This document shows positions 31,992 to 36,128 of a stretch of DNA of 64,000 bases, piece after piece (position 1 is the first letter of the stretch; every line of letters starts with the position of its first letter). The notes beneath the pieces were generated by a model. It did not search any database. It worked only from the letters and a program-made list of their open reading frames with translations, and had not been told where the DNA came from. The position numbers were made by a program, and so were the translations under genes. The stretch covers positions 261,719 through 325,718 of the forward strand of contig NZ_VOBR01000004.1 of the NCBI RefSeq assembly GCF_007845675.1, written 5' to 3'. The DNA is from Lentzea tibetensis (GTDB lineage: Bacteria; Actinomycetota; Actinomycetes; Mycobacteriales; Pseudonocardiaceae).

Positions 31992-32414
31992 ATGGGATCG
32001 TGGCAGCCGATGGACGACGCCGAGCTGGCCGCCGGCTGGCGGCTGTGGCTCGAGCTGAGCACCCGCGTCTGGCCGGATCCGTCGTGGGACGGAACACCGG
32101 CGGACGCGATCCGGCAGATGCGCGACCTGCTGGCCGCGTGCGAGGAGATCAGGGCCTCCTACGTCGGCGAGAGCACCGCGCCGTCGATCGCACTGCTGCA
32201 GCTGCTCCAGTCGATGACCTTCGTCGCGAGCTTCCCCGTCGACCTGTGGCACGACGACACCCACCCGCTGGACGTCGAACGCGCCGCGCTGCTGCACGGC
32301 GACCTCGCGTCGTTCGCCGAACACGTGGCAGGCGTGCGCGCGGCGCTGGCTCGCGGCGGCGGCTGGGCCTCGCTGGACGCCGAACGTCGCCCGTGGGGCC
32401 TACCGGTCGACTGA
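31992..32414 (+). CDS. Hypothetical protein
   Basis: A 140-residue acidic, Trp-rich protein (ELAAGWRLWLELSTRVWPD; VASFPVDLWHDDTHPLDVERAALL). It is mostly helical with no membrane segment. ATG 31992 follows GGAG by 4 nt and gives a sensible N-terminus. It converges with the PH-like gene, overlapping by 15 nt. The family is not recognised. Confidence 0.65.
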   Translation: MGSWQPMDDAELAAGWRLWLELSTRVWPDPSWDGTPADAIRQMRDLLAACEEIRASYVGESTAPSIALLQLLQSMTFVASFPVDLWHDDTHPLDVERAALLHGDLASFAEHVAGVRAALARGGGWASLDAERRPWGLPVD

Positions 32415-32828
32415 CCGCGCGTTGATCGCCTCGACGATCGTCTGACCGATCTTCTCGTCGTCCGCAGGGCTGCCCTTGTAGACGTCGCACGGCACGGTCT
32501 TGCCGTCCGTCAGCTTCAGGTAGAGGGCGTCACGGGCGATGAACCCGCTGCTCGACCTGAGCTCCGCACCCTCGATCTCGGCCCACTTCAGCTTGCGGTC
32601 GCGCATGTGGTTGCGCACCTCGATGCCGTCGTCGGTGAGCACGACCGCCACGCGCCACGTCCGCCAGGTGCCGTAGAGCAGGAAGGCGATGAACGCGGCC
32701 GAGCCCCACACCTGCGCCGTGGAGCCGCGGTTGATGCCGAAGACGAGGTAGACCGCCGCCAGCACCAGCAGGAACGCGAAGCCTGCCACCTGGACGGCCC
32801 GGATCTTGGGCTGGTTGAACGTCGTCAT
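32400..32828 (-). CDS. Bacterial PH-domain membrane protein
   Basis: A 142-residue protein. Two membrane helices (VAGFAFLLVLAAVYLVFG; GSAAFIAFLLYGTWRTWR) precede a small beta domain: VVLTDDGIEVRNHMRDRKLKWAEIEGAEL, as in bacterial PH domains, then a Cys-containing strand. Its ATG overlaps the upstream paralogue stop as ATGA. The pair probably forms a heteromer in the membrane, which is inference. Confidence 0.75.
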   Translation of the reverse strand: MTTFNQPKIRAVQVAGFAFLLVLAAVYLVFGINRGSTAQVWGSAAFIAFLLYGTWRTWRVAVVLTDDGIEVRNHMRDRKLKWAEIEGAELRSSSGFIARDALYLKLTDGKTVPCDVYKGSPADDEKIGQTIVEAINARSVDR

Positions 32829-33265
32829 GGTGTTGTCACCACCCTGGCGTTCAACGCCTGCAGGACGTGCTGGGTGGCCCGCATGTCGTCGAGCGGGCCG
32901 TCACCGAAGGCGTGGCACCGCACCTCCCGGCCGTCCTCGAGGAGGAGGAACACGCCGCCGGGCTGGTAGAACCGCGGGAACATCCGGTACTCGGCTCCGG
33001 TGATCTCGCTCCACCGCAGGTGGTGGTCGCGGAGCTGGTTCCGCACGACGACACCGTCCGCGGTGACGGTGATCGACTGCCGCCACACCCGCCAGATGCC
33101 CCACACCGCTACTGGCGCGGTCATGCTCGACAACACCATCTGCACGGGATCCGGCTGGCCGAGCAACGGCACGAGGCCCGCGATGGCCCCGACCAGCACG
33201 ATCCCGAAGGCGACCACGCCGAAGGCGCGCAGTCGCGGCTGGAAGTACCTGACGGGCTGGTCCAT
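32825..33265 (-). CDS. Bacterial PH-domain membrane protein (paralogue)
   Basis: A 146-residue protein with the same plan as its downstream neighbour: two membrane helices and ITVTADGVVVRNQLRDHHLRWSEITGAEYRM, with the matching GREVRCHAFGD strand. The V-R-N-x-x-R-D-x-x-L-x-W-x-E-I block is shared, so the two genes arose by tandem duplication. ATG 33265 is 193 nt from the divergent SDR-P450 gene. Confidence 0.75.
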   Translation of the reverse strand: MDQPVRYFQPRLRAFGVVAFGIVLVGAIAGLVPLLGQPDPVQMVLSSMTAPVAVWGIWRVWRQSITVTADGVVVRNQLRDHHLRWSEITGAEYRMFPRFYQPGGVFLLLEDGREVRCHAFGDGPLDDMRATQHVLQALNARVVTTP

Positions 33266-33457: not shown

Positions 33458-35584
33458 ATGAGGATTGTCGTCAGTGGAGCGTCCGGGTTCTTCGGTCGAG
33501 CAGTGACCGATCTGTTGCTGCGGCACCCCGTTCAGCCCGAGTTGATCCTCACCTCGCGCACGCCTGAGAAAATCGCTGACCAGGGTGCCGCCGTGCGCCG
33601 CGGCGACTTCGACGACCGTGCCGGTTCGGCAGAGGCGTTCGCGGGTGGCGACGTCCTGTTGTTGATCAGTGGTGTGAAAGTCGGCCACCGCGTCGAACAG
33701 CACCGAAACGCGATCGAAGCGGCGAAAACCGCCGGAGTGCGGCGGATCGTCTACACCTCGTTCATCGGCACGACCGCGGACAACACCGCGTCGGTCAGCC
33801 GGGAACACTTCGAAACCGAGGAAATCCTCAAAGCCAGCGGGCTCGACTGGACGATTCTGCGCAACGGCTTCTACGCGGAGTCGATGCTGGACGCGAGCGT
33901 GCCGATCGCGGTGCGGACCGGTCGCTGGGTCAGCGCGGGCGGCGACGGCACGGTGAGCTTCGTCGACCGGGCCGACTGCGTGAGCTGCGCCGTGGAGGTG
34001 CTCACCGCACCTGGGCACGAGAACCGCACCTACGAGATCAACAGCGGCGACCTGCTGTCGTTCCGCGACGTCGCCGCGCTCGTCTCCGACGTCGCCGGCA
34101 CGCCCGTCGAGTTCGTCGACGTGACCGACGAGGGGCTGTACGAGCACTTCGGCCGGCTCGGCATCCCGCGTGAGGCGCTCGCCGAGTTCGACGTCGACGG
34201 CTACCGCTTCTGCAGCGACGACATGGTCTCGTTCGAACGCGCCATGCGGCACGGCCACTTCGCCGTGCCCACCAGCGACGTCGAACACCTCATCGGCCGC
34301 CCGCCCCGCCGCCTGCCCGAACTGGTGCGATCGCGGCGCGCCGAACTGCGCGCACTCGTGGCGCCCCCTGAGTTCGACCCGCTCAGCGACGCCGCACTGC
34401 GCGATCCCGCGTGCATGTTCGCCACCGCGCTGAACGACCGCCCGGTGTTCTGGTCGGAGGCCATCGGGGCCTGGATCGTCACCCGCTACGACGACGTCCA
34501 CCGCTACCTCAACGAGCTGGACGTCTTCCGCGCCCCGGTCCACGACGCGTTCACGGTCCCGGAGAAGTTCGCCGACCGCTTCCCGTCCGAGCTGATGAAC
34601 TACCTGCTGCCCGCGATGGACCCGCCCGAGCACACCGCGCCGAGGCGCGCGATCCAGAGCTGGTTCCGGCGCCCGCGAATCCTCGAGCTGCAGGACCGGA
34701 TCGCGACCGCGGCGCACGAGCTCATCGACGGGTACGCCGAAGCCGGCGAGGTCGACCTGATGGCGACCTACTGCTATCCGCTGACCCTGAACACCCTGCT
34801 CGGCATGCTGGGTCTGCCGGACACCGACGCCAAGGTGATCCACGACCTCGGTGAAGCCGCCATCCGCATCCTGGAGGCGGTGAAGGTCCCGCTCGCCGAA
34901 CCCGAGCTGAGCCAGGTGTGGGAGGACTACCTCGCCGGTCAGGAGTACATCCGCACGGTCGTCGACGAGCGGATCGCCAACCCCGGCGACGACATCATCT
35001 CGTTCATGGCGACCGCGACGGACGACGACGGGAACCCGGTGCTGACCCGCGAACGCGTCGCACTGCACGTCGCCGAGCTCGCTTTCGCCGGGCACGACAC
35101 GACCGCCCAGCTCATCGCCAACATGGTCCAGCACCTGTCCAGCCACCCCGCGCAGCTGGCCAAAGCCCGCCGCGATCCCGACCTGTGGCCGAACGTCACC
35201 GAGGAGACGCTGCGCAGGCGTCCGTCCGCCACCTTCACCGCACGGGCCGCGGCACGCGACGTCACCGTGGGCGGCGTGACCATCCGCGCGGGAGAGCTGG
35301 CCTGGTTCGCGCTGACCGGCGCGTCGAACGACCCGCACCACTACGACACCCCGGCGCGGTTCGACATCGACCGCCCGCACCCTGCGGACCACCTGGCGTT
35401 CGGCCGCGGCCCGCACGCCTGCCCCGGCGCGCCGCTCAGCCGCGCCCAGGCGACCGTCGCGGCCCGCGTGCTCTTCGAGCGGCTCACCGACCTGCGCGTG
35501 GTGACGGATCTCCCGCTCGACTTCGCCCCGCTGGTGATCCTGCCCAAGCGCAACAGCATGCGGGTGGCGTGGTCAGCGCACTAG
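33458..35584 (+). CDS. NmrA-type SDR fused to cytochrome P450
   Basis: One uninterrupted 708-codon frame encodes two enzymes. Residues 1-285 are an NmrA/atypical SDR: GASGFFG (7-13), VYTSFIG (98-104), LRNGFYAESML, no obvious Tyr-Lys pair. Residues 300-708 are a complete bacterial P450: I-helix AFAGHDTTA (542-550), K-helix EETLR (582-586), heme loop FGRGPHACPGAP with Cys 655. The junction, around RPPRRLPELVRSRRAELRAL, has no stop or internal ribosome site. Such proteins could reduce and oxidise one substrate in sequence. ATG 33458 has no clear ribosome site. I do not know this fusion as a standard architecture. Confidence 0.9.
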   Translation: MRIVVSGASGFFGRAVTDLLLRHPVQPELILTSRTPEKIADQGAAVRRGDFDDRAGSAEAFAGGDVLLLISGVKVGHRVEQHRNAIEAAKTAGVRRIVYTSFIGTTADNTASVSREHFETEEILKASGLDWTILRNGFYAESMLDASVPIAVRTGRWVSAGGDGTVSFVDRADCVSCAVEVLTAPGHENRTYEINSGDLLSFRDVAALVSDVAGTPVEFVDVTDEGLYEHFGRLGIPREALAEFDVDGYRFCSDDMVSFERAMRHGHFAVPTSDVEHLIGRPPRRLPELVRSRRAELRALVAPPEFDPLSDAALRDPACMFATALNDRPVFWSEAIGAWIVTRYDDVHRYLNELDVFRAPVHDAFTVPEKFADRFPSELMNYLLPAMDPPEHTAPRRAIQSWFRRPRILELQDRIATAAHELIDGYAEAGEVDLMATYCYPLTLNTLLGMLGLPDTDAKVIHDLGEAAIRILEAVKVPLAEPELSQVWEDYLAGQEYIRTVVDERIANPGDDIISFMATATDDDGNPVLTRERVALHVAELAFAGHDTTAQLIANMVQHLSSHPAQLAKARRDPDLWPNVTEETLRRRPSATFTARAAARDVTVGGVTIRAGELAWFALTGASNDPHHYDTPARFDIDRPHPADHLAFGRGPHACPGAPLSRAQATVAARVLFERLTDLRVVTDLPLDFAPLVILPKRNSMRVAWSAH

Positions 35585-36118
35585 CGCCCGCACCGTGCTC
35601 GCGAGCTCCTCGTCGTCGATCTCGGCCACCAGCAGTTCGGTGGTCGCGTCGAACGCACGCACGAGCTCGGCCGGATCGAGCGAGTGGACGCGCGTTGCGG
35701 TGAACCTCTCCCGCCGATCGTGTACTCCGCCTGCCACATCCGCCCTCGGGCGAGGCTCGACCGCACCTGCAGCGCGTAGTGCCACGCCCAGCCGATCAGC
35801 TCGCCGGCCGTGGTCGGCGGAGCCTGCGGCAGGTCGTTCGCCGTGCCGAAGAGCAGCGCGAAACCCGGCCCTGTCGCACCGAACTCCGCCTCCGGCCAGA
35901 ACGCGACGTCGACCGCAACGTGTTCGCGAGCAGGTAGACGCGGTTCAGGATCCCGCCCTGCCACAGGTCGAGGTGACCCACCGCGTCGTGCGCGGCGTAG
36001 ATGCGCTCAGTCAGGTTCCGCGACCACCTGGTCGAGATCGGCTGTCACGGACAGCGCGAGATCGATGTCGGACCAGCGGTCGTCCGTGCCGAGTGCGGCT
36101 GACCCGGTGTTAAACCGA
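35579..36118 (-). pseudogene. Decayed nucleotidyltransferase gene
   Basis: Pieces of one nucleotidyltransferase lie in order in different minus-strand frames. The first piece has the catalytic NTGSAALGTDDRWSDIDLAL (about 36113-36050). Next comes GHLDLWQGGILNRVYLLANTL, then VDVAFWPEAEFGATGPGFALLFG...WHYALQVRSSLARG, then ERFTATRVHSLDPAELVRAFD to a stop near 35579. At least three frameshifts are needed. The extreme N-terminus is missing next to the aldo/keto reductase stop. The intact ancestor would resemble small aminoglycoside-type nucleotidyltransferases. Confidence 0.7.
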
Positions 36119-36128
36119 AGGCCTCGAC

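What the first reader, a model, noticed from the sequence alone, without database searches (positions are those of the whole stretch)
33458..35584. One polypeptide joins an NmrA-type SDR to a complete P450
A continuous 708-codon frame links a Rossmann NmrA-like protein (1-285) and a P450 with all hallmarks (I-helix AGHDT, ExxR, Cys 655). No stop or internal start separates them. P450 fusions are usually to ferredoxin or reductase domains, and this combination is not one I know. The SDR half could reduce or sense NADPH, deliver substrate to the P450, or supply a two-step oxidoreduction. Tandem membrane PH proteins are divergent upstream.
Basis: partly seen in the sequence, partly recalled or inferred. 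Interest (0 to 1): 0.75.

Follow-up and report, generated by a model that had tools for sequence, protein, structure and literature searches.

The report
Natural reductase-P450 fusion enzyme
An actinobacterial gene encodes one protein that joins a pinoresinol-reductase-like enzyme to a cytochrome P450, probably carrying out two successive reactions on plant-type aromatic compounds, a pairing of known enzymes that I did not find described.

Summary
In detail: one open frame of 708 codons joins an NmrA-type NADPH reductase domain to a complete P450. Among sampled genomes only the window's own carries the fusion (1 of 25 in the genus; 1 of 347 in the family). The closest P450s (58% identity, two Saccharopolyspora) are separate proteins 53-63 bp behind a separate NmrA gene, but that NmrA is another subfamily: a shared origin of the two NmrA partners is rejected (AU p 8e-51). 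So this P450 lineage met an NmrA reductase at least twice. The fused NmrA half groups with sphingomonad reductases near lignostilbene-dioxygenase-family genes and keeps every NADPH contact modelled for pinoresinol reductase NrPinZ, one conservatively. Several relatives of both halves lie among aromatic-metabolism genes. Best reading: a bifunctional enzyme for phenolic compounds, the reductase acting on substrate and not feeding the heme; the P450 takes electrons from separate proteins. Activity is untested, one genome only, and a single-base error at the junction is unlikely but not excluded.

The parts
33458..35584 (+). Fused gene, 708 codons plus stop
33458..34327 (+). NmrA-type (QOR2/PinZ-like) NADPH reductase half, residues 1-290
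   Evidence: Pfam; PDB matches QOR2 and triphenylmethane reductase; trees
33476..33496 (+). GxxGxxG dinucleotide motif GASGFFG, residues 7-13
34214..34228 (+). SDDMV, core of an insert shared with the two sphingomonad homologues and (as SDELV) with L036 and L164, absent from the other 7 of the 12 rows aligned
   Evidence: alignment
34310..34366 (+). Junction, residues about 285-303; in-frame GTG codons at 34325 and 34358; residues 285-298 modelled as a helix at low confidence
34364..35581 (+). Cytochrome P450 half, residues 303-708
   Evidence: Pfam; solved P450 7x53 aligns over residues 302-705; model pLDDT 79-98 in blocks of ten; fold match
35087..35101 (+). I-helix AGHDT, residues 544-548
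35204..35215 (+). ExxR motif, E583-R586
35420..35422 (+). Heme-ligand Cys655

Best explanation
One polypeptide carries two catalytic units that act on the same small phenolic or lignan-like compound. The N-terminal unit is an NADPH-dependent reductase of the QOR2/PinZ type that transfers hydride to a quinone, quinone methide, benzylic ether or similar group. The C-terminal unit is a class-I-like P450 that hydroxylates or O-dealkylates the same molecule, fed by a separate ferredoxin and reductase. The reductase half is not the P450's electron donor, because the chain has no flavin or iron-sulphur domain. Fusion keeps a reactive intermediate close to both sites. Shown: one frame, both families, intact motifs, relatives and their neighbourhoods. 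Inferred: activity, substrate class, order of the steps, channelling.
For: Both halves keep their catalytic or cofactor residues (read against the NrPinZ contacts). The nearest NmrA relatives (L160, L161; 46-48% identity) sit with a GMC oxidoreductase and a lignostilbene-dioxygenase-family (RPE65) gene, the kinds of enzyme that work with PinZ. In the six-row NmrA subgroup 4 of 6 have a P450 fused or within 4 kb, against 2 of 29 control NmrA loci (Fisher p 0.004, or 0.015 without the window). L166 (NmrA relative) has an intradiol dioxygenase, an iron alcohol dehydrogenase, a ferredoxin reductase and a P450. L172 (P450 relative) has an intradiol dioxygenase, a likely iron alcohol dehydrogenase, a 2Fe-2S reductase and FolD. 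The S. spinosa NmrA-P450 pair lies beside an aromatic amino acid lyase. No reductase domain follows the P450.
Against: No aromatic-catabolic cluster surrounds the fusion: of 16 window proteins tested (6, 10) none is a ring-cleaving dioxygenase, ferredoxin or ferredoxin reductase of a P450; flavin oxidoreductases lie 12-15 kb away. In the 18-row P450 group only 4 rows (the window, two Saccharopolyspora, L043) have an NmrA in the DNA held, which for 10 of the 18 rows is about 1.5 kb of flank. The P450s near L164 and L166 are only about 26% identical to this one. The NmrA subgroup and the 4 kb limit were chosen after seeing the data; if the two Saccharopolyspora loci and L167 are counted as controls the p values rise to 0.012 and 0.037. 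L043's place in the subgroup is weak (94/88). The NmrA half of the structure model is poor. L160/L161 do not have the published pin gene order. One genome only.
Confidence: 0.5

Rival explanations
1. Same two-enzyme chemistry, but in secondary-metabolite biosynthesis (p-coumarate-type or other aromatic scaffold) rather than catabolism.
For: The S. spinosa NmrA-P450 pair lies beside an aromatic amino acid lyase whose best NCBIfam match is tyrosine ammonia-lyase BagA/FevW, below that model's cut-off. In Streptomyces sp. NBC_00239 a more distant P450 and an NAD(P)H-binding gene are adjacent in a gamma-butyrolactone region.
Against: No biosynthetic core gene among the 16 window proteins tested; the NmrA half is nearer to homologues in catabolic-looking clusters.
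Confidence: 0.2
2. The NmrA half is a non-catalytic NADP(H) sensor or scaffold that regulates the P450, as NmrA proper does for its partners (recalled).
For: NmrA-family membership; a fused Rossmann domain could gate the P450.
Against: It keeps the residues that face the 2'-phosphate, the ribose and the nicotinamide in the NrPinZ model and groups with likely catalytic reductases.
Confidence: 0.12
3. Two separate proteins: an assembly or sequencing indel at the junction, or internal initiation at GTG 34325 or 34358.
For: Frame +2 is open from 34171 to a stop at 34369, just after a run of C, so one missing or added base could hide overlapping genes; in-frame GTG codons exist. Only one genome shows the fusion.
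Against: Coding signal holds through the junction and there is no Shine-Dalgarno match before the internal starts, though the main start has none either; almost no spacer is left between the domains. Read data could not be seen.
Confidence: 0.1
4. The NmrA half delivers electrons from NADPH to the heme, a new kind of self-sufficient P450.
For: It should bind NADPH by sequence; members of the sister P450 group carry a reductase in the same chain at the other end.
Against: No flavin or Fe-S domain in the chain, so no evident route for single electrons.
Confidence: 0.04

Closest known systems
PinZ pinoresinol reductases (NrPinZ, NaPinZ, SlPinZ) and QOR2/YtfG-type NmrA reductases
   Same: Same fold family by sequence; the residues modelled to hold NADPH in NrPinZ are present (S9, S33 for Thr, R34, K38, S71, G72, R78, Y139); best solved relatives by sequence are QOR2/YtfG and triphenylmethane reductase, which also head the NrPinZ structure list in PMC12817470
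   Different: Fused to a P450; no pin cluster around it; PinZ letters themselves were not compared; substrate unknown
Self-sufficient P450-reductase (PFOR) fusions, the architecture of CYP116B
   Same: The sister group of this P450 (40-46% identity) includes chains with a C-terminal 2Fe-2S reductase, shown by Pfam for the three tested (L009, L030, L031)
   Different: The window P450 has no C-terminal reductase; its extra domain is N-terminal; CYP116B46 (6laa) is not among its best 60 solved relatives
Adjacent NmrA and P450 genes of Saccharopolyspora spinosa and a congener
   Same: Closest P450 found (58%), with an NmrA gene directly upstream on the same strand
   Different: Separate genes; NmrA of another subfamily (34% identity; AU p 8e-51)
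Solved P450 7x53
   Same: 45% identity over the P450 half, TM-score 0.94 by target
   Different: Solved as a stand-alone P450 chain; the one paper search for it found nothing relevant, so its function is unknown to me

Membership tests
Cytochrome P450 | Heme Cys motif, ExxR, I-helix acid/Thr | tested here: met
Cytochrome P450 | P450 fold | tested here: met
   model pLDDT 79-98 in blocks of ten in this half; 7x53 TM 0.94 by target
Cytochrome P450 | 450-nm CO band | not testable with these tools
   needs protein
NmrA-like NADPH reductase (QOR2/PinZ type) | GxxGxxG and NADPH-contact residues | tested here: met
   one conservative change, Ser33 for Thr
NmrA-like NADPH reductase (QOR2/PinZ type) | Fold of the N-terminal half | tested here: inconclusive
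   model confidence too low in this half, two NmrA rows besides the window
NmrA-like NADPH reductase (QOR2/PinZ type) | NADPH-dependent reductase activity | not testable with these tools
   needs assay
Pinoresinol reductase PinZ | Sequence orthology with NrPinZ/SlPinZ/NaPinZ | not tested
   no PinZ letters at hand; L160, the window's relative, agrees with NrPinZ at 10 of the 11 numbered residues checked, Thr for Gly76
Pinoresinol reductase PinZ | Next to a lignostilbene dioxygenase (pinU) | tested here: not met
   none among the 16 window proteins tested; in relatives L160 and L161 an RPE65-family gene lies two genes on
Self-sufficient P450 (PFOR type) | Reductase and 2Fe-2S domains in the same chain | tested here: not met
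   Pfam finds neither

The most novel reading that the evidence does not exclude
A natural P450 fusion whose partner domain acts on the substrate rather than on electron supply: a built-in NADPH reductase that opens, or removes, the reactive quinone, quinone methide or benzylic ether that the P450 consumes or makes, in a P450 lineage that acquired NmrA partners independently at least twice.
Probability: 0.35. Interest if true: 0.65.

Novelty: new variant of a known kind. Interest (0 to 1): 0.5.

Why it matters
The P450 fusions known to me (recalled) mostly solve electron supply. A P450 fused to a substrate reductase would be a ready-made two-step catalyst for aromatic, possibly lignin-related, compounds. 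The repeated pairing of this P450 lineage with different NmrA subfamilies gives a direct way to look for its substrate.

Tried and rejected
Rejected: origin of the fusion by simple joining of the Saccharopolyspora gene pair (different NmrA subfamily). Not supported: recent foreign origin by base composition; G+C in 200-base steps from 33401 on is 0.66-0.76, window mean 0.69. Led nowhere: viral contigs held no relative; the promoter scan found none; the aldo/keto reductases near the fusion and near the S. spinosa pair are 33% identical, so they are not taken as a shared cluster. The structure model was poor in the NmrA half, with only two NmrA rows besides the window. NmrA-P450 adjacency alone is weak evidence: in the window's own genome one further pair (contig C25) is seen by eye among 73 P450 rows and 30 NAD_binding_10 rows, about what chance gives by my own estimate. 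The long open frames around NmrA in L038 and L136 were taken as spurious extensions; Pfam was run on L038 only and found nothing before its NmrA. Rows left out of the 29 controls: L167 (no P450), the two Saccharopolyspora (found by their P450) and the Streptomyces L127 (found by a query with both halves; it has a P450 next to it). L127 was also left out of the second NmrA tree as a very long branch.

Full report
What is there. The frame at 33458-35584 encodes 708 residues without interruption. Residues 1-290 are an NmrA-type Rossmann reductase and residues 303-708 a P450. The linker is minimal: solved P450 7x53 aligns from residue 302, and the NmrA homology runs to about residue 290. In-frame GTG codons at 34325 and 34358 have no Shine-Dalgarno match; the main ATG has none either. 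The P450 half is modelled with high confidence and matches 7x53 (45% identity, TM 0.94 by target); the NmrA half is modelled badly, with only two NmrA rows besides the window. No arrangement of the two halves is claimed.

How rare it is. With the whole protein at E 1e-54, 1 of 25 genomes of the genus and 12 of 347 sampled from the family match; of these only the window's own genome has both domains in one frame. With the P450 half alone, 1 of 394 genomes of the class (at 1e-100), 4 of 397 of the order (at 1e-60), 3 of 396 of the phylum and 3 of 150 of the genus of G387 match; the window's genome is counted in the first three, the samples overlap, and only a few candidates per genome were scored, so a strongly diverged fusion could be missed. 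In these loci (about 1.5 kb flank) an NmrA lies next to the P450 only in the window and the two Saccharopolyspora. A scan of 84,980 species genomes found 211 stretches with relatives of the P450, of which the best 80 were kept; of these 80, two have an NmrA in the 6 kb or less of flank held, S. spinosa (L042) and a Conexibacter MAG (L043), and neither is fused. Of 72,556 plasmid records 1689 match and 2 cover at least 80% of the query; in both the halves are annotated as separate genes. Viral contigs hold none.

P450 lineage. The nearest P450s are 58% identical and come from S. spinosa (named; G156 has a contig of the same length) and a genome with the same genus code. With the window they form one group (100/100), next to a nine-row group (99/98) of stand-alone P450s and P450s with a C-terminal reductase; a 2Fe-2S domain was shown in the three of these tested. 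Three plasmid members lie near a classical SDR and a serine hydrolase. The window chain has no such reductase. CYP116B46 is not among the best 60 solved relatives, so I speak of the architecture, not of the CYP116 family. In the 18-row group around all of these, 4 rows have an NmrA nearby or fused and 14 have none in the DNA held.

NmrA lineage. The fused NmrA half groups with two sphingomonad proteins (L160, L161), L036 (wider locus L166) and Rhodococcus L164 (95/93). These five share an insert around SDDMV/SDELV that the other seven aligned rows lack. The Conexibacter protein L043, tail to tail with a P450 of the wider lineage (34% identity), joins at 94/88, not firmly; holding it as the window's direct sister is mildly rejected (p 0.029). 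The NmrA next to the Saccharopolyspora P450 belongs elsewhere: holding it with the window is rejected (lnL difference 97.6, AU p 7.8e-51; the test was named after the first tree was seen). Hence at least two independent associations with this P450 lineage.

Link to pinoresinol reductase. In PMC12817470 (abstract, passages, section 2.1, and the first part each of sections 1 and 2.2 seen) the NADPH contacts modelled in NrPinZ include Ser10, Thr34, Arg35, Lys39, Ser75, Gly76, Arg82 and Tyr144. L160 has these at the same numbers except Thr76; the window has S9, S33, R34, K38, S71, G72, R78 and Y139. In PMC12607616 (passages, and sections 7 and 8 whole) pinZ is translationally coupled to pinU, a lignostilbene-dioxygenase relative, and PinY is a GMC oxidoreductase. 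In L160 the order is NmrA, PQQ dehydrogenase, GMC oxidoreductase, RPE65-family gene; L161 has the same GMC and RPE65 genes at the same distance. So the company is alike but the order is not the published one. PinZ letters were not compared. PMC12997858, PMC4640377 and PMC7260179 were seen in passages only.

Neighbourhoods. L166 (NmrA relative): intradiol dioxygenase, iron alcohol dehydrogenase, ferredoxin reductase, P450. L164: a monooxygenase scoring best against HsaA, below its cut-off, a flavin reductase and a P450. Both P450s are about 26% identical to the window's. L172 (P450 relative, 32%): 2Fe-2S reductase, intradiol dioxygenase and iron alcohol dehydrogenase by NCBIfam matches below cut-off, and FolD. 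S. spinosa pair: aromatic amino acid lyase, aldo/keto reductase and two more P450s. A P450 is fused or within 4 kb in 4 of 6 members of the NmrA subgroup and in 2 of 29 control loci; another control has one at 5.3 kb, and four controls (L185, L188, L200, L203) have under 4 kb on one side, as does L043. Fisher p is 0.004 (0.015 without the window); with L167 and the two Saccharopolyspora as controls it is 0.012 (0.037). Group and limit were set after seeing the data, so these are indicative only. Around the fusion itself, 16 window proteins tested show no such cluster: bPH_6 twice, aldo/keto reductase, symporter, MarR regulators, acyl-CoA dehydrogenase, DUF1206, VanW, thioredoxin-like/NHL, FMN dehydrogenase, FAD oxidoreductase, dCTP deaminase-like, cation efflux, and two without a match.

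Mechanism. An NmrA reductase moves hydride and has no carrier for single electrons (family knowledge), so it should act on a substrate, not on the heme; the P450 should draw on separate redox proteins. The most economical account is a two-step enzyme on phenolic compounds. The order of the steps and the substrate are open. Literature searches for such a fusion listed none; two returned no paper, and for the others I saw titles and abstract starts only.

Noticed in passing
window 35581-36128 (-): Only short ORFs in shifting frames between the fusion gene and the aldo/keto reductase; possibly a decayed gene. Not read through.
   Followed up: no
window 32400-33265 (-): Two tandem bacterial PH (bPH_6) proteins divergent from the fusion; no link to it found.
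   Followed up: partly
L166 2975-9754: Compact stretch with intradiol dioxygenase, iron alcohol dehydrogenase, NmrA reductase, ferredoxin reductase and P450: looks like an aromatic catabolic cluster.
   Followed up: partly
L040 2197-9661 and L039 2786-10235: Saccharopolyspora: two P450s, an aldo/keto reductase and (tested in L040) an aromatic amino acid lyase, facing an NmrA-P450 pair; looks like a small aromatic gene cluster.
   Followed up: partly
L128, L162, L163: P450s of the sister group lie near a classical SDR and a serine hydrolase on Streptomyces, Rhodococcus and Salipiger plasmids.
   Followed up: partly
L129 3989-6200: Halorubrum plasmid pR1SE2 has an SDR-family gene directly before a P450, the same order as in the fusion, at low identity.
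   Followed up: no
L169 7685-11004: A P450 of the wider group has, two genes away, a protein that begins like an extended Rossmann reductase (by sight; not an NmrA match at the thresholds used).
   Followed up: no
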